The translations under genes were made by a program, and so were the position numbers. Source: an uncultured Pelagibacteraceae bacterium (GTDB lineage: Bacteria > Pseudomonadota > Alphaproteobacteria > Pelagibacterales > Pelagibacteraceae). Taken from it: a stretch of DNA of 35,606 bases. The notes beneath the pieces are model-generated. The model saw only the letters and a list, made by a program, of their open reading frames with translations. It had not been told where the DNA came from and made no database searches. Positions within the stretch are counted from its first letter, which is position 1. Each line of letters begins with the position of its first letter. The stretch is from NCBI GenBank assembly GCA_902511185.1, contig CABXEK010000008.1, positions 1 through 35,606 of the forward strand, read 5' to 3'. This document shows positions 8,086-27,269 of the stretch, one piece after another.

Positions 8086-8669
8086 TTTATAGTTTCCAAA
8101 TATTCTTTGATTTTTTTTACTGGCAATCCCATTATTGTTTCTTCGTCTCCATTAATTTCTGAAAATAAATTTCTTCCCTCACCTTCAATTTGATAAACAT
8201 TATAAGCATATAAATTTTCGTCCGATATTTTGGATAAATAGATCTTAAGATCTTCTATAAAAAAATTTTTCATTATTAAAGATGCTTTATCTGTAAAATT
8301 CCAAATCATAGAACCATTCCTTGATATACAAGCTGAGCTAATTAAATAATGTTTTTTACCATTAAGTCTTTTCAATATATCTAAAGCTTCATCTCTGCTT
8401 TCTGGTTTGGATATTAGCTGACCCTCTAAATCAATTACACTATCTGCACCCAAAACAATACTATCTTGAAATTTTAAGCTTACTTTATTAGCCTTAAGTT
8501 CAGCTAAATTCTTAGAAATAATTTCTGGGGTTACTTTTTCTTTCAATAAACTGTTTTTGACAACCTCCTCATCAACATTTGATGGAATTACTTCGTTGGG
8601 TATTTTATTCTTATCTAATATTTCTTTTCTAACCTTGCTCTTAGATGCAAGAATAATTTTATTTAACAT
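8082..8669 (-). CDS. maf: Maf family nucleoside triphosphate pyrophosphatase
   Basis: Maf proteins hydrolyse non-canonical or modified NTPs to the monophosphate, and overproduction blocks septation in some bacteria. The 195-residue protein has the phosphate-binding opening LASKSKVRKEIL (7-18), the GADSVI motif with catalytic Asp76, and the LNGKKHYLIS segment. Which Maf subfamily (TTP/UTP or 7-methyl-GTP) it belongs to is not clear by eye. It overlaps the ppsR stop by 11 bases. Confidence 0.93.
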   Translation of the reverse strand: MLNKIILASKSKVRKEILDKNKIPNEVIPSNVDEEVVKNSLLKEKVTPEIISKNLAELKANKVSLKFQDSIVLGADSVIDLEGQLISKPESRDEALDILKRLNGKKHYLISSACISRNGSMIWNFTDKASLIMKNFFIEDLKIYLSKISDENLYAYNVYQIEGEGRNLFSEINGDEETIMGLPVKKIKEYLETIK

Positions 8670-9486
8670 TATTTAAATATATTTCATGAATTTTTATTAT
8701 CGATGCTGCAGTTTCTTCAACTGATTTTCTTGTAACATCTATAGAAGGCCACTTATATTTCTGAAAGGTTTTTTTTGCTTCATATATTTCTTTTTTTATG
8801 TTTTCAATACTTGTGTAGTTTTTGTTTTCTGTTTCTTTTAAAGAGTTCATTCTATTTCTTCTTAAATCTACCAAACGCTCAGGTTCTGTGTTTAAACCAA
8901 TTACACAGGTTAATTGTGGACTATCCTTTAACTTTTGTGGTAAAGAATTTTCGTTAACAAGTGGTATGTTCGATGTTTTAAAACCTTTGTTTGCTAAATA
9001 AATAGATGTGGGGGTTTTGCTCGTTCTGCTAACTCCAACCAATACTATGTCTGATTTTTCTATTTCATTACTTAGATTGCCATCGTCATGATTCATTGTG
9101 AATTGAATTGCTTCTATTCTATCATAATATTCATCGTTAAGAACATGTTGTCCGCTAGGTTCGTGTGAGGCTTTTTGATTAAGAATTTTAGAGAAATTTA
9201 AAATTAAATTTCCCAGAACACCAAAACAAGGAATTTTTTTTTCATTGCTTACATTTGATAAATATTTAGCCAACGCGTTGTCTACAATTGTATATAATAT
9301 TACAGAATTCTGATTTTTTTTAGCATCTTCTAGAATTTTGAGAATTTGATTTTCTGTTCTAGTAAATGAATAGGAGTGTATTTTATATTCTATATTTTTA
9401 AATTGTGCTTTTAATGCTAAAAAAATTCTATCTAAAGTTTCTCCAGTAGAATCTGAAATTAAATATATTTGATATGTATTATTCAT
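8659..9486 (-). CDS. ppsR: PpsR/PDRP-type bifunctional kinase-pyrophosphorylase (DUF299)
   Basis: This family reversibly phosphorylates a threonine of pyruvate phosphate dikinase or PEP synthase and so switches the enzyme off or on. The 275-residue protein begins with ISDSTGETLDRI (10-21), carries the family motifs TIVDNALA and SGQHVLNDEYYDRIEAI, and has the P-loop GVSRTSKTPTS at 151-161. It is the first gene left of the candidate origin and heads the minus-strand run. In Caulobacter and Rickettsia the origin is also bounded by hemE and, to my recollection, a gene of this family. Which of the two dikinase targets it controls is not shown here. Confidence 0.92.
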   Translation of the reverse strand: MNNTYQIYLISDSTGETLDRIFLALKAQFKNIEYKIHSYSFTRTENQILKILEDAKKNQNSVILYTIVDNALAKYLSNVSNEKKIPCFGVLGNLILNFSKILNQKASHEPSGQHVLNDEYYDRIEAIQFTMNHDDGNLSNEIEKSDIVLVGVSRTSKTPTSIYLANKGFKTSNIPLVNENSLPQKLKDSPQLTCVIGLNTEPERLVDLRRNRMNSLKETENKNYTSIENIKKEIYEAKKTFQKYKWPSIDVTRKSVEETAASIIKIHEIYLNNVK

Positions 9487-9663
9487 GAATAATTTGTTAA
9501 TAAATATGTATTATTTTAATATTATTAAACAATTTAAATATTATTGAATAATTGTTGTAAAATAAGGGTTTTATTAACATTAATAAACAGAATTAGAGAA
9601 TAATACATTAAATTTAATAAAATTATAAAAAGCTTCATTTTAAACAATTTTATTACCTCATAG

Positions 9664-9702
9664 ATGTTATTAAAATGTTAATATAATGTTAATAATTAGT
9701 TA
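9664..9702 (+). repeat. 11-bp phased ATGTTA direct repeat in the candidate origin
   Basis: ATGTTA begins at 9664, 9675 and 9686, exactly 11 bases apart, and a degenerate fourth unit (TAGTTA) keeps the phase at 9697. The run ends six bases before the consensus DnaA box. One helical turn spacing suggests protein binding on one face of the DNA, or an unwinding element. Confidence 0.55.
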
Positions 9703-9708
9703 TCTTCA

Positions 9709-9717
9709 TTATTCACA
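9709..9717 (+). promoter_or_regulatory. DnaA box
   Basis: TTATTCACA matches the bacterial DnaA-box consensus TTATNCACA at every position. It lies 41 bases ahead of the hemE start at the edge of the AT-rich phased repeat. Confidence 0.6.
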
Positions 9718-9758
9718 TTACATAATACTAATACAATAATTATATATATTATTTTAAT

Positions 9759-10760
9759 ATGACACCAATTCAGGAAGTAATAATTAATAAAAAAACTAAT
9801 ATAAATCCGATATGGATAATGAGACAGGCTGGTAGATATTTACCAGAATTTAGAGAAATAAGAAAATTAAATCCAGATTTTATAAAACTTTGTTTAAATA
9901 AAGACCTTTCCACAGAAATAACATTGCAGCCAATTAAAAGATTTAATTTAGATGCCGCTATAATTTTTTCAGATATTTTAATGTTACCCTATGGTTTAAA
10001 TCAAAAAGTAGAATTCAAAAAAAATGTTGGGCCAATTTTAGGTGAATTAGATATTAAAAAAATGTCACAATTAGATGAAATAGATTTTGTTGAAAAGATC
10101 TTTCCAGTTTATAAAGCAATTGAAAAAGTAAGTAAAAATAATCTTACTAAAAATATAAACACAATAGGTTTCGTTGGTGCGCCTTGGACCTTATTAGTTT
10201 ACATGATTAATCTTCAATCACCAAAAAAAGATTTAAAAAAAGACTTTTTTGAAGATAATTTTTTAATAAATAGAATTTTATTAATTTTGGAAAAATTTTT
10301 AAAGATTCATATTAAAAACCAAATTGAAAATGGTGCAAATATAATTCAAATATTTGATAGTTGGGCAGGTCTTTTAGGTGAAAAAGATTTGCCAAATTAC
10401 ATTTATACACCAACATTAAATTTAGTTAATTATACAAGAAGTTTAGGAGTGCCCGTTATCTGTTTTCCGAGGGAAATAAAAAATTATAAAGAATTTTGTG
10501 AAATTGTAAAACCTGACGCTGTTAGTATTGATTATAATATTGATCCAAAAAAAATATGTAATGATATTAAAATACCAATTCAGGGAGGACTTGACCCAAA
10601 AATTTTACTTGGTGATAAGGAAACAATAAAAAAAGAAGCAACAAAATATTTGGATATTTTTAAAAATCATCCATATATTTTTAATCTTGGACACGGTGTT
10701 TTGCCAGAAACAAAACCAGAGATGGTTGAGTATTTAGTAAATATTGTAAAAAATTATTAA
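9759..10760 (+). CDS. hemE: HemE, uroporphyrinogen decarboxylase
   Basis: Decarboxylates the four acetate side chains of uroporphyrinogen III to give coproporphyrinogen III. The 333-residue barrel protein has the signature WIMRQAGRYLPEFREIR (19-35) with the substrate-binding arginines, the FVGAPWTLLVYMI segment, FDSWAG, and the C-terminal NLGHGVLPETKPE with its conserved His. It is the first gene right of the candidate origin. No Shine-Dalgarno sequence is seen before the ATG. Its stop overlaps the hemH start by one base (TAATG). Confidence 0.97.
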   Translation: MTPIQEVIINKKTNINPIWIMRQAGRYLPEFREIRKLNPDFIKLCLNKDLSTEITLQPIKRFNLDAAIIFSDILMLPYGLNQKVEFKKNVGPILGELDIKKMSQLDEIDFVEKIFPVYKAIEKVSKNNLTKNINTIGFVGAPWTLLVYMINLQSPKKDLKKDFFEDNFLINRILLILEKFLKIHIKNQIENGANIIQIFDSWAGLLGEKDLPNYIYTPTLNLVNYTRSLGVPVICFPREIKNYKEFCEIVKPDAVSIDYNIDPKKICNDIKIPIQGGLDPKILLGDKETIKKEATKYLDIFKNHPYIFNLGHGVLPETKPEMVEYLVNIVKNY

Positions 10761-16936: not shown

Positions 16937-17589
16937 TGGAACAAGAAATTATAAATTCATATAATAGACTCAATGGCTTAAATGTTTCACGTGAAACATA
17001 TATGGACTTTGAGTTCTTGATTTCAATGATAATTGAAAAAAACAAGAAGATTAATATAATAAGTCAAGAAACTGCGAAAAAAAAAGTTATAAGAGACCGT
17101 CATATTATAGATTCTGCACAAATAATTGATTTTATTGATTTAAATAGCAATACAACTACTGATATAGGTACTGGAGGTGGAATGCCAGGGATAATTATCG
17201 CAATCATATTAAAAAATATGAAAAAAAACATGAAAGTGCATTTATATGAGAAAAGCTATCATAAAAGTGCTTTTTTAAAAGAAGTATCCAGAAAGCTAGG
17301 ATTAAAAACGGAAATATTCCAAGAAAATATTTTTAATTTAAAAAAATTAGAAACAGGAACTATAATGTCAAGAGCATTTAAACCAATGCCAATTGTTTTA
17401 GATTTAGTTTATGAAAATTTTTCAAGTTATAAAAATTTAATTTTTTTTATGGGCAAGAATGGAAAAAAAATTTTTGAAAACTCTTTAAGAAATTGGGATT
17501 TGGAGTACACAGAAAAAAAAAGTTTAACTAATGAAGACTCTTTTTTGTTAAATATTAAAAATATAAAAAAAAAAATTAAAAAAAATTAA
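16936..17589 (+). CDS. rsmG: RsmG (GidB), 16S rRNA G527 N7-methyltransferase
   Basis: Methylates guanosine 527 (E. coli numbering) of 16S rRNA. The 217-residue protein has the SAM-binding loop DIGTGGGMPG (76-85) and the RHIIDS motif just ahead of it; SRAF near the end of the fold is also typical. The NVSRETY segment at residues 16-22 is encoded by a perfect parS site, so this stretch serves two purposes. The last ten residues are almost all lysine, encoded by long A tracts. The stop is directly followed by the parA ATG. Confidence 0.95.
   Translation: MEQEIINSYNRLNGLNVSRETYMDFEFLISMIIEKNKKINIISQETAKKKVIRDRHIIDSAQIIDFIDLNSNTTTDIGTGGGMPGIIIAIILKNMKKNMKVHLYEKSYHKSAFLKEVSRKLGLKTEIFQENIFNLKKLETGTIMSRAFKPMPIVLDLVYENFSSYKNLIFFMGKNGKKIFENSLRNWDLEYTEKKSLTNEDSFLLNIKNIKKKIKKN
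16983..16998. promoter_or_regulatory. parS centromere site (ParB binding palindrome)
   Basis: TGTTTCACGTGAAACA is a perfect 16-base palindrome identical to the canonical bacterial parS. It sits in the rsmG coding frame and encodes Val-Ser-Arg-Glu-Thr plus flanking bases. It is about 1.4 kb upstream of parB and 7.3 kb from the candidate origin. ParB would load here and spread with CTP. Confidence 0.95.
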
Positions 17590-18384
17590 ATGCAAATTAT
17601 TTCTGTCATAAATCAAAAGGGTGGGGTTGGTAAAACAACAACGGTCATTAATCTTGCTGCTGGTTTGTCTCAACAAAATAAAAAAATTTTAGTTATAGAT
17701 TTAGATCCTCAGGGTAATGCAACTACAGGTCTTGGATTGTCTAATATGGAAAATTCTACAGATACAATTTATGGAGTGTTGAACGGAACCAAAGAAATTT
17801 CTGAAGTAATTAAAAAGACCCAGTTTGAAAACCTTGATATTATCACTTCAAATGTTGATCTGTCAGGTTTAGAAGTTGAGACTGCTGAAGATGGAAATAG
17901 AGCCTTTATTTTGAAAGTCAAATTAACCGCCTATTTAAATAATTCTAGTTCATTATATGATTATATATTGATTGATTGCCCTCCTTCACTGAGCTTGCTA
18001 ACAGTTATGGCGCTAGTCTCTTCGAACTCTCTTGTGGTGCCGCTTCAGACAGAATTCTTTGCTCTCGAGGGTCTTACACAACTTATTAAAACAATTGAGA
18101 GAATAAAAGTTAGTTTAAATCCAGAATTAAAAATAAGAGGAATTCTTTTGACCATGTATGATAAGAGAAACAAACTTTCAAGCCAAGTTGAAAAAGAAGC
18201 AAGAGATTATTTTAATGAAAAAGTTTATTCAACTGTGATACCAAGAAATGTAAGATTATCAGAAGCTCCTTCTCATGGTATGCCGGTTTTGATTTATGAT
18301 AAATCATGCCCGGGTAGTAAATCATATTTCAATTTTACAGATGAATTTATAAATCAAGAAACAATTATTGGTAGTGCTGCGTAA
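17590..18384 (+). CDS. parA: ParA (Soj), chromosome partitioning ATPase
   Basis: A deviant Walker-A ATPase that binds nucleoid DNA and moves ParB-parS complexes. The 264-residue protein has KGGVGKTT (10-17), the A' motif DLDPQGNATTGLG, and Walker B-like ILIDCPPSL. It lacks an N-terminal HTH extension, so it is the chromosomal rather than the P1-plasmid type. It follows rsmG without a spacer and overlaps parB by one base (TAATG). This position supports a chromosomal segregation role near the origin. Confidence 0.97.
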   Translation: MQIISVINQKGGVGKTTTVINLAAGLSQQNKKILVIDLDPQGNATTGLGLSNMENSTDTIYGVLNGTKEISEVIKKTQFENLDIITSNVDLSGLEVETAEDGNRAFILKVKLTAYLNNSSSLYDYILIDCPPSLSLLTVMALVSSNSLVVPLQTEFFALEGLTQLIKTIERIKVSLNPELKIRGILLTMYDKRNKLSSQVEKEARDYFNEKVYSTVIPRNVRLSEAPSHGMPVLIYDKSCPGSKSYFNFTDEFINQETIIGSAA

Positions 18385-19232
18385 TGGACCCTAGCAAAAT
18401 TAAAAAAGGGTTAGGTCGTGGATTATCATCTCTAATTGGAGAAACAAAAATAGAGACTCAAAAAAACCAATTATCTATTAGCGACTTAATACCTAATAAG
18501 TTTCAACCTAGAAAAATTTTTGACGAAAATAATTTAATTGATCTCACAAACTCAATTAAAGAAAGAGGTATCTTGCAACCAATTATTGTTAGAAAATCTA
18601 AAGAGAATAAATCAAAATTTGAAATAATTGCTGGAGAGAGAAGGTGGCTGGCGGCTCAAAGAGCAGGGCTTCATAGCGTACCAGTAGTTATCACTGAAGC
18701 CAATGATTTAAAATCCCTGGAGTTTGCAATAGTTGAAAACGTACAAAGACATGATTTAAATGCGCTAGAAGAAGCACAAGGTTACAAACGTTTGATTGAT
18801 GAATTTTCTTATGACCAAGAAAAAGTTTCAAAATTTATAGGAAAAAGTAGGAGCCACATTACAAATTCTTTAAGACTTCTTACATTGCCTTCTGAAGTAG
18901 TAAATTTAATACAAGAACAAAAATTGACAGCTGGCCATGCAAAAATTTTAGTAGGGCTTGAAAATGCTAATTTTGTTGCAAATAAAATTATAGAAAAAAA
19001 ACTTTCTGTAAGACAAGCAGAAAGTTTTGTAAAAATATTTAAAAAAAAAGGCAAAAAACTTATTAACTCTAAAGATCCAAATATAAAAGATCTTGAAATA
19101 TCTGTATCAAATAAAATAGGTGTAAACGTTGTTATTCAAAACAAAAAAAATAACAAAGGTAAAGTTTCCTTTGAATACAAAAATTTAGATCAACTGAACA
19201 GTATACTGGATATAATTAAAAAATATTATTAA
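18384..19232 (+). CDS. parB: ParB (Spo0J), parS-binding CTPase
   Basis: Binds parS, hydrolyses CTP and slides along DNA as a clamp, then is moved by ParA. The 282-residue protein starts with KKGLGRGLSSLIG, the ParA-stimulating N-terminal peptide. The CTP-binding motifs GERRWLAAQRAGL (84-96) and ENVQRHDLNALEEAQGY (118-134) are clear. The helix-turn-helix near 140-170 (KFIGKSRSHITNSLRLLTLP) contacts parS. The C-terminal dimerisation region is short and Lys-rich. A perfect parS lies in rsmG upstream. Its stop shares TTAA with the stop of convergent holA. Confidence 0.97.
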   Translation: MDPSKIKKGLGRGLSSLIGETKIETQKNQLSISDLIPNKFQPRKIFDENNLIDLTNSIKERGILQPIIVRKSKENKSKFEIIAGERRWLAAQRAGLHSVPVVITEANDLKSLEFAIVENVQRHDLNALEEAQGYKRLIDEFSYDQEKVSKFIGKSRSHITNSLRLLTLPSEVVNLIQEQKLTAGHAKILVGLENANFVANKIIEKKLSVRQAESFVKIFKKKGKKLINSKDPNIKDLEISVSNKIGVNVVIQNKKNNKGKVSFEYKNLDQLNSILDIIKKYY

Positions 19233-26205: not shown

Positions 26206-26696
26206 AAAATTTTTATTTTTGAACTTTTTTTAATTATTTTAAGCATAATCAAAAAATCTTTTTCTTTTAAAGCAATACATCCGGCCGTGGGTTTGTAATC
26301 TTTAGTAAGATGAATAAAAATACAACTACCTAGCCCTGTAATAGGTTTTTTAAAGTTATACTTAATTGGAATTAAAAAATCATATTTATAATCTTTTCTA
26401 TTTAATTTTTCATGTTTAATTACTTTTTCTATTTTAAAAAGTTTGTTATATTTTTTTGGAAAACGAGCATCATCACACCAACCCATATATTTTTTTATTT
26501 TAATACATTTTAATAAAGTTAATGGTTTTTTTTTACGATCTCCCCTAAAATATAGATTCTCTATTTCAAAGGTTCCTTTTGGCGTTTTTTTATCTCCTTC
26601 TTTTTTATTCAATGTTGATCCCTTTTTCCCAATACAACACCTAAATTTAAATTCATCTATTTGAAGAGTGTGTTTATTTTTAACAAAAATTGTCAT
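26202..26696 (-). CDS. L,D-transpeptidase (YkuD-fold) protein without a visible signal peptide
   Basis: A 164-residue YkuD-domain protein. The catalytic motif is IFIHLTKDYKPTAGCIAL, with His129 and nucleophile Cys140, close to the short COG3786-type motif (HxxxxxxxPTxGCxAL). GDKKTPKGTFEI (34-45) is the conserved strand-turn near the active site. Enzymes of this fold make 3-3 peptidoglycan or protein-peptidoglycan links outside the inner membrane, but no signal peptide or N-terminal membrane helix is visible here. It is divergent, with a 15-base gap, from the OmpR-type regulator, a pairing I recall in other alphaproteobacteria. Confidence 0.85.
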   Translation of the reverse strand: MTIFVKNKHTLQIDEFKFRCCIGKKGSTLNKKEGDKKTPKGTFEIENLYFRGDRKKKPLTLLKCIKIKKYMGWCDDARFPKKYNKLFKIEKVIKHEKLNRKDYKYDFLIPIKYNFKKPITGLGSCIFIHLTKDYKPTAGCIALKEKDFLIMLKIIKKSSKIKIF

Positions 26697-26711
26697 ATTC
26701 TCCTTTTAAGT

Positions 26712-27269
26712 ATGCAGAATTTAATAATATATAAGTTTACATCATTATATCATATTCTCGAAGAACTTAGTCTAGATTTAAATTTTAATATAAGTTTTGT
26801 AGATGATGTTAATTCTTTAAATAATAAATTAAAAAATCATAATAATTATCTAATTATATCTAATAAGAAATATTTAGATATTAGTAATCAATTTGTTTTA
26901 GAAAATACTCCAATTAATATTTTTAAATTAGTAGAAAAAATAAATATTGAATTTTTAAAATTACAATTTAATAGCCAGTCACATGTGAAAGTAAAAAATT
27001 ATATTATAGATCTAAATTCAAGAGAAATGTCAGTAAATAGTACCAAGATTAAGTTGACCGAAAAAGAAATTAATACAATCATCTATTTATCTAAATCAAA
27101 CAAACCAGTTAGCATTGATAAATTACAAGAAAAGGTGTGGAGCTATCAATCTGATATTGAAACTCATACTGTTGAAACTCATATCTACCGTTTAAGAAAA
27201 AAAATTCTAAACATATTTAATGATAAAGAATTTATAATTAGTGAAAAAAATGGTTATCAAATCAAATAA
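26712..27269 (+). CDS. OmpR-type winged-helix regulator with a degenerate receiver domain
   Basis: A 185-residue protein, taken from the second Met of the ORF-track entry because the 17 codons before it lie within the opposite gene and are unlike a receiver start. The C-terminal 95 residues are a clear OmpR/PhoB winged helix: LTEKEINTIIYLSK, VSIDKLQEKVW, then the recognition helix ETHTVETHIYRLRKKI and the wing ending GYQIK. The N-terminal 75 residues look like a shortened receiver without the acidic cluster and phospho-Asp at the end of strand 3 (LIISNKKY). Phosphorylation by a usual histidine kinase is therefore unlikely. It may control the divergent L,D-transpeptidase gene (inference). Confidence 0.83.
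   Translation: MQNLIIYKFTSLYHILEELSLDLNFNISFVDDVNSLNNKLKNHNNYLIISNKKYLDISNQFVLENTPINIFKLVEKINIEFLKLQFNSQSHVKVKNYIIDLNSREMSVNSTKIKLTEKEINTIIYLSKSNKPVSIDKLQEKVWSYQSDIETHTVETHIYRLRKKILNIFNDKEFIISEKNGYQIK

What the first reader, a model, noticed from the sequence alone, without database searches (positions are those of the whole stretch)
9487..9758. Candidate SAR11 chromosome origin between ppsR and hemE
This is the only long gene-free gap and the point where gene direction flips: five genes leave leftward and ten leave rightward. The order hemE-hemH-hemJ-rho-mnmE-mnmG-rsmG-parA-parB and the hemE-adjacent origin are known from Caulobacter and Rickettsia. It carries DnaA-like boxes and a very AT-rich core. 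An origin in a minimal free-living genome, packed into 272 bases shared with two promoters, would be unusually compact.
Basis: partly seen in the sequence, partly recalled or inferred. Interest (0 to 1): 0.7.

Follow-up and report, generated by a model that had tools for sequence, protein, structure and literature searches.

The report
SAR11 chromosome replication origin
The 272-base gap between ppsR and hemE is very probably where this SAR11 ocean bacterium starts copying its chromosome: the standard alphaproteobacterial origin in a very short form, with conserved binding sites for the initiator protein DnaA and a triplet-repeat DNA-opening element next to hemE.

Summary
The gap 9487-9758 (272 bp, 13% GC, longest in the window) lies between divergent ppsR (COG1806) and hemE, the flanks of the Caulobacter and Rickettsia origins. 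In a closed SAR11 genome (G026), strand-corrected AT skew switches at 335 kb (interval 330-355); hemE starts at 335.7 kb. The fit rejects dnaA, 64 kb away.

The gap persists at 261-294 bp in 55 family members. It holds DnaA-box 9-mers far above chance (TTATNNACA 167 against 18.8 in shuffles) and is the only place in G026 with four in 284 bp. Beside hemE, a DnaA box is followed by a 4-bp spacer and about five phased triplets (lag-3 identity 0.56 against 0.37): the DnaA-trio unwinding layout, with similar blocks across Alphaproteobacteria. The block survives where hemE left the locus and where genes were inserted beside ppsR, so it is not just a promoter.

Corrections: nine genes, not ten, run rightward; only one canonical box; high AT is not distinctive. 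An exact parS lies in rsmG, 7 kb away. Box D may double as the hemE -35 element. No binding or marker-frequency data exist for this locus.

The parts
9487..9758 (.). Proposed oriC: ppsR-hemE gap, 272 bp, 12.9% GC
   Evidence: Length 261-294 bp in 55 family members; skew switch in closed relatives
8659..9486 (-). ppsR (Kinase-PPPase, COG1806/DUF299), left flank of the origin
   Evidence: PF03618, E 8e-90
9759..10760 (+). hemE, right flank of the origin
   Evidence: PF01208, E 3e-85
9495..9503 (-). DnaA box A, TTATTAACA (TTATACACA in five relatives)
   Evidence: alignment; TGTNNATAA within 35 bp of ppsR in 37 of 55 gaps against 0.8 in shuffles
9571..9579 (+). DnaA box B, TTATTAACA (TTATTCACA in L029)
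   Evidence: alignment
9676..9684 (-). DnaA box C1, weak (ATATTAACA; ATATTCACA in many relatives)
   Evidence: alignment
9687..9695 (-). DnaA box C2, TTATTAACA
   Evidence: alignment
9700..9708 (+). Weak tandem 9-mer D' (TTATCTTCA) directly upstream of box D
   Evidence: Two mismatches to TTATCCACA; conserved AATC core in the genus
9709..9717 (+). DnaA box D, TTATTCACA, the anchor box; its last six bases also fit a -35 element
   Evidence: Only perfect TTATNCACA in the window; box-like core here in 48 of 55 gaps against 6.3 in shuffles
9718..9721 (+). 4-bp spacer TTAC
9722..9736 (+). DnaA-trios ATA ATA CTA ATA CAA (bottom strand 3'-TAT TAT GAT TAT GTT-5')
   Evidence: Lag-3 identity 0.56, lag-6 0.58, null 0.370 +/- 0.011; [AC]TA x3 top strand 30/55, bottom 1/55
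9735..9740 (+). Possible hemE -10 (AATAAT), 17 bp after TTCACA 9712-9717
   Evidence: Column frequencies over 122 gaps; not proven
16983..16998 (+). parS, exact TGTTTCACGTGAAACA, inside rsmG
17590..19232 (+). parA and parB (origin segregation)
   Evidence: AAA_31 and ParB domains

Best explanation
The ppsR-hemE gap is the SAR11 chromosomal origin, homologous to the alphaproteobacterial hemE/COG1806 origin. DnaA binds the scattered boxes A, B, C1 and C2 and the anchor box D. From box D it is handed across a 4-bp spacer onto triplet DnaA-trios on the bottom strand, where a DnaA filament melts the AT-rich DNA beside hemE so that the helicase can load and two forks leave. Shown here: position at the skew switch, clustering and conservation of the boxes, and the box-spacer-triplet layout with its phase. 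Inferred from B. subtilis and other species: DnaA binding, filament formation and unwinding. CtrA control is unlikely, because no ctrA ortholog was found in Pelagibacter (PMC2877005) and TTAA-N7-TTAA is not enriched.
For: Flanking genes ppsR and hemE as in the Caulobacter and Rickettsia origins (PMC1914354). G026 skew switch at 335 kb, interval 330-355, hemE at 335.7 kb; dnaA rejected. G005 switch at 1,090 kb, gap at 1,090.2 kb. Gap 261-294 bp in all 55 family members with both genes. TTATNNACA 167 against 18.8 +/- 4.5; only cluster of four in 284 bp in G026. Phased triplets after box D, with similar blocks in 15 of 21 other Alphaproteobacteria, shuffles 7.3. Element kept where hemE left the locus and where genes were inserted beside ppsR. 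Exact parS 7 kb away. Canonical DnaA DNA-binding motif.
Against: No marker-frequency, binding or replication data for this locus. The raw GC-skew minimum in G026 is 28 kb away in a flat valley. In sampled genomes the fit was weak (G035), 24 kb off (G009, gap outside the interval) or, for fourfold GC sites, discordant. Genus g4 has weak triplets beyond the first CTA. A regular expression for the module misses G026's own site and finds 9 others.
Confidence: 0.93

Rival explanations
1. The gap is only a divergent promoter region for ppsR and hemE, perhaps DnaA-regulated, and the origin lies elsewhere within some tens of kb.
For: TTCACA-17-[AT]ATAAT fits a sigma-70 promoter 38-42 nt before hemE; skew resolves the origin only to about 10-50 kb.
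Against: The element persists where hemE is gone and where ppsR is separated from it. Four DnaA-box 9-mers in 284 bp occur nowhere else in G026. Length conservation at 261-294 bp in a 95% coding genome. Box D is never TTGACA in 122 gaps.
Confidence: 0.05
2. The origin is real, but the triplet block is the hemE promoter spacer and -10, not DnaA-trios; opening occurs elsewhere in the gap.
For: The promoter fit covers the same bases; genus g4 has weak triplets but a good -10.
Against: Lag-3 and lag-6 periodicity over about 15 bp; CTACTA-type repeats where the -10 is poor (L117-L119, L134, L138); similar blocks next to boxes in other Alphaproteobacteria at other distances from hemE.
Confidence: 0.15
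3. The origin lies at dnaA, as in many bacteria.
For: General precedent only (own knowledge).
Against: dnaA lies about 63 kb from the gap; the G026 fit rejects 400 kb (scaled residual +54.6 for AT and +18.3 for GC); G005 shows no skew switch at dnaA near base 1.
Confidence: 0.01

Closest known systems
Caulobacter crescentus Cori and Rickettsia prowazekii origin (hemE/COG1806 origins, PMC1914354)
   Same: Same flanking genes in the same divergent orientation, AT-rich gap, several DnaA boxes; the downstream genes to rho-mnmE-mnmG-rsmG-parA-parB also agree (gene order from own knowledge).
   Different: Shorter (261-294 bp against 383-395 bp in Rickettsia); no enriched CtrA sites and no ctrA ortholog; mostly TTATTAACA instead of canonical boxes; no IHF consensus site in the window.
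BUS, basal origin unwinding system (DnaA-box plus DnaA-trios) of Bacillus subtilis and others (PMC8287927, PMC6669920)
   Same: Box, 4-bp spacer, at least three 3'-NAN-5' triplets with GAT among them, on one strand only, next to AT-rich DNA.
   Different: The tandem partner box (D') is weak and lies upstream; the block overlaps a possible hemE promoter; unwinding not tested.
Wolbachia, Ehrlichia and Anaplasma hemE origins (PMC1914354)
   Same: hemE-flanked AT-rich origin with few DnaA boxes in a reduced genome.
   Different: There the other flank is COG1253, not COG1806, and the origins are 385-620 bp.

Membership tests
Alphaproteobacterial hemE/COG1806 origin | Gap flanked by divergent hemE and COG1806 (ppsR) | tested here: met
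   also 21 of 29 other Alphaproteobacteria
Alphaproteobacterial hemE/COG1806 origin | Location at the skew switch of the chromosome | tested here: met
   G026 and G005; weaker in G035 and G009; not testable in the window's own fragmented genome
Alphaproteobacterial hemE/COG1806 origin | Cluster of DnaA boxes | tested here: met
   TTATNNACA 167 against 18.8 in shuffles; top cluster in G026; only one canonical box in the window
Alphaproteobacterial hemE/COG1806 origin | CtrA sites TTAA-N7-TTAA (Caulobacter type; absent in some relatives) | tested here: not met
   23 against 15.4 +/- 3.7; no ctrA ortholog in Pelagibacter (PMC2877005). Not obligatory: several Rickettsiales origins lack them (PMC1914354)
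Alphaproteobacterial hemE/COG1806 origin | IHF site | tested here: inconclusive
   11 in 55 gaps against 4.2 (shuffle maximum 9), none in the window
Alphaproteobacterial hemE/COG1806 origin | Replication actually starts here (marker frequency or autonomous replication) | not testable with these tools
   Published SAR11 coverage is V-shaped (PMC9589681), but the passages read do not name the locus
BUS (DnaA-box/DnaA-trio unwinding module) | DnaA box followed within 16 bp by at least three 3'-NAN-5' triplets | tested here: met
   TTATTCACA-TTAC-ATA-ATA-CTA-ATA in the window; phase conserved in 122 gaps
BUS (DnaA-box/DnaA-trio unwinding module) | DnaA-dependent strand opening that needs box and trios | not testable with these tools
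   Needs a biochemical assay

The most novel reading that the evidence does not exclude
In SAR11, origin opening and hemE transcription share the same ~30 bases: box D serves as the -35 element and the DnaA-trios fill the promoter spacer and -10, so that DnaA occupancy, hemE expression and initiation exclude or trigger one another. This would be a minimal, CtrA-free coupling of initiation to gene expression in a streamlined genome.
Probability: 0.3. Interest if true: 0.55.

Novelty: new member of a known kind. Interest (0 to 1): 0.42.

Why it matters
SAR11 bacteria are among the most abundant cells in the ocean, and replication-based growth estimates for them depend on where copying starts; a precise, family-wide origin fixes that coordinate. 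It also offers a very small, CtrA-free natural origin in which the proposed ancestral DnaA-box/DnaA-trio module can be tested with a handful of sites.

Tried and rejected
Own-genome cumulative skew: impossible, 55 contigs. Raw GC skew alone: too flat to place the origin to better than tens of kb. Fourfold-site fits on sampled genomes: too few sites, one discordant. E. coli consensus boxes alone: never two within 300 bp in G026, so no cluster seen; the relaxed TTATNNACA, suggested by the alignment, gave the cluster, so that pattern was chosen after seeing the alignment. AT-richness as evidence: rejected, many loci equal it. CtrA control: not supported (PMC2877005). A regular expression for the whole module finds 9 other hits in G026 and misses the true one, so a single-sequence scan is not a detector. 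Paper searches found no description of a SAR11 oriC at hemE in the held library; databases such as DoriC were not searchable here, so an existing prediction cannot be excluded.

Full report
The window is contig C8 of a fragmented SAR11 metagenome-assembled genome (55 contigs, 0.97 Mb); its closest named relatives are Candidatus Pelagibacter and Pelagibacteraceae genomes. The finding concerns 9487-9758. The gap is real: ppsR (PF03618, the COG1806/DUF299 family) reads left from 9486, hemE (PF01208) reads right from 9759, and nothing of gene size lies between. It is the longest gap in the window (272 bp; next 183 bp). Five genes run left and nine, not ten, run right.

Position. Because the window's genome is not closed, I tiled a closed relative, G026 (1,308,759 bp; from memory the length of strain HTCC1062, an inference). 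The raw cumulative GC skew has a flat valley at 300-360 kb (minimum 307.6 kb) and a maximum at 996 kb, about half a genome from hemE. A two-changepoint fit at fourfold-degenerate sites with gene strand as a covariate gives the origin at 335 kb for AT skew (interval 330-355) and at 310 kb for GC skew (300-345); hemE starts at 335,737. dnaA, at 400 kb, is rejected (scaled residual +54.6 and +18.3). In a second genus, G005, 5-kb raw skew gives 1,090 kb with the gap at 1,090.2 kb. In G009 the best value is 165 kb with the gap at 141 kb, outside the narrow interval, and in G035 the fit is weak; both were sampled, not tiled. Fourfold-site fits in the sampled genomes were mostly uninformative and one (G009, GC) disagreed.

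Conservation. In all 55 family members with both genes in place (11 genera), ppsR and hemE diverge around a gap of 261-294 bp; G026 is 95% open reading frame by a simple caller. Seventy-eight further genus loci show the same arrangement, 77 of them with a gap of 266-285 bp. Two natural rearrangements are informative. In genus g9 hemE is gone from the locus and ppsR faces rho, yet the gap retains TTATAAACA-TGAC-CTAATA. In L264 two genes are inserted beside ppsR, yet about 300 bp with boxes and triplet block remain attached to hemE. The element is thus separable from either neighbour's promoter.

Anatomy. The alignments show 9-mers of the form TTATNNACA: A (9495-9503, minus), B (9571-9579, plus), C1 and C2 (9676-9684 and 9687-9695, minus; C1 departs by one base) and D (9709-9717, plus), with a weak D' directly upstream. 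In this genome only D is canonical TTATNCACA, but A is TTATACACA in five relatives and B is TTATTCACA in one, which supports their identity as DnaA boxes. Across the 55 gaps TTATNNACA occurs 167 times (shuffles 18.8 +/- 4.5, maximum 29) and TTATNCACA 32 times (1.8, maximum 5). These totals count related sequences, so they measure enrichment, not independent events. In G026 the gap is the only place with four TTATNNACA in 284 bp. The DnaA proteins carry a canonical DNA-binding signature (RRSR, RPRQ, SLPEIGR, RDHTT).

Unwinding element. After box D come four spacer bases and then triplets. Over 122 distinct gaps the consensus is ATA-NTA-C(T/A)A-(A/C)TA-C(A/T)A at positions 5-19. Identity at lag 3 is 0.56 and at lag 6 is 0.58, against 0.370 +/- 0.011 for matched stretches of the same gaps (maximum 0.408 in 1000 draws). 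Three tandem [AC]TA occur on the top strand in 30 of 55 gaps (shuffles 7.9, maximum 15) and on the bottom in 1. This is the layout published for the DnaA-trio system: a box, a short spacer (a gap of 4 bp on average next to the trios) and 3'-NAN-5' triplets with 3'-GAT-5' favoured (PMC8287927). I did not re-derive strand polarity from the B. subtilis sequence; it rests on that paper's 3'-GAT-5' convention. Of 21 other Alphaproteobacteria with the same gene pair, 15 carry paired CTA-type triplets on the top strand of the gap (shuffles 7.3 +/- 2.1, maximum 14), mostly near hemE and often just after a CCACA or TCACA box. The SAR11 block is therefore probably a member of a class-wide element.

Overlap with a promoter. 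The same bases also fit a sigma-70 promoter: TTCACA (the end of box D), 17 bp, [AT]ATAAT, with hemE mostly 38-42 nt after the box. Box D is never spelled TTGACA, the triplet phase is not a promoter property, and several genera have good triplets with a poor -10. Genus g4 shows the reverse (weak triplets, good -10). Both constraints probably act. This is the most novel reading left open, and it is unproven.

Regulation. TTAA-N7-TTAA sites are not enriched (23 against 15.4 +/- 3.7). IHF-like sites are slightly enriched in the family but absent from the window, and GANTC is depleted (1 against 7.6). Pelagibacter lacks a ctrA ortholog (PMC2877005). SAR11 methylates GANTC with an ori-to-ter gradient, where ori was set by GC skew (PMC9516812). 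SAR11 populations show V-shaped coverage, implying a single origin (PMC9589681); the locus was not named in the passages read.

Partition site. An exact parS lies in rsmG at 16983-16998. The best match in G026 (one mismatch) is at 344,998, 9 kb from its gap. parA and parB follow rsmG in the window.

Verdict. The feature is a known kind of origin in a compact form. What this adds is anatomy: the box family and the phased DnaA-trio layout conserved across SAR11. Function is inferred, not shown.

Noticed in passing
16983-16998: Exact 16-bp parS inside rsmG, the only exact copy in the held part of the genome; G026 has a one-mismatch copy 9 kb from its origin and no exact one.
   Followed up: partly
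55 family gaps, 9487-9758 in the window: GANTC, the SAR11 methylation motif, is nearly absent from the origin gap (1 site against 7.6 expected, shuffle minimum 2).
   Followed up: no
L147, L148 (genus g9): hemE has left the origin locus: ppsR faces rho across about 354 bp, and only a weak (30%) hemE-like match lies elsewhere in G009 and G022.
   Followed up: partly
L264 bases 436-1697: Two genes (one methyltransferase-like, one possibly LicD-like, judged by eye) are inserted between ppsR and the origin of single-cell genome AG-426-I10.
   Followed up: partly
26661-27269: Short protein with an OmpR-type DNA-binding domain (PF00486) but no receiver domain found by Pfam, 17 kb from the origin.
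   Followed up: no
dnaA in 24 or so family genomes: In the contiguous genomes checked dnaA sits about 62-74 kb from the ppsR-hemE gap, a conserved distance from the origin.
   Followed up: partly
G040 (L120, L124): hemE is split into two matches on one strand in this closed genome, with 12 bases between the matched stretches: a frameshift, a sequencing error or a real gene split.
   Followed up: no
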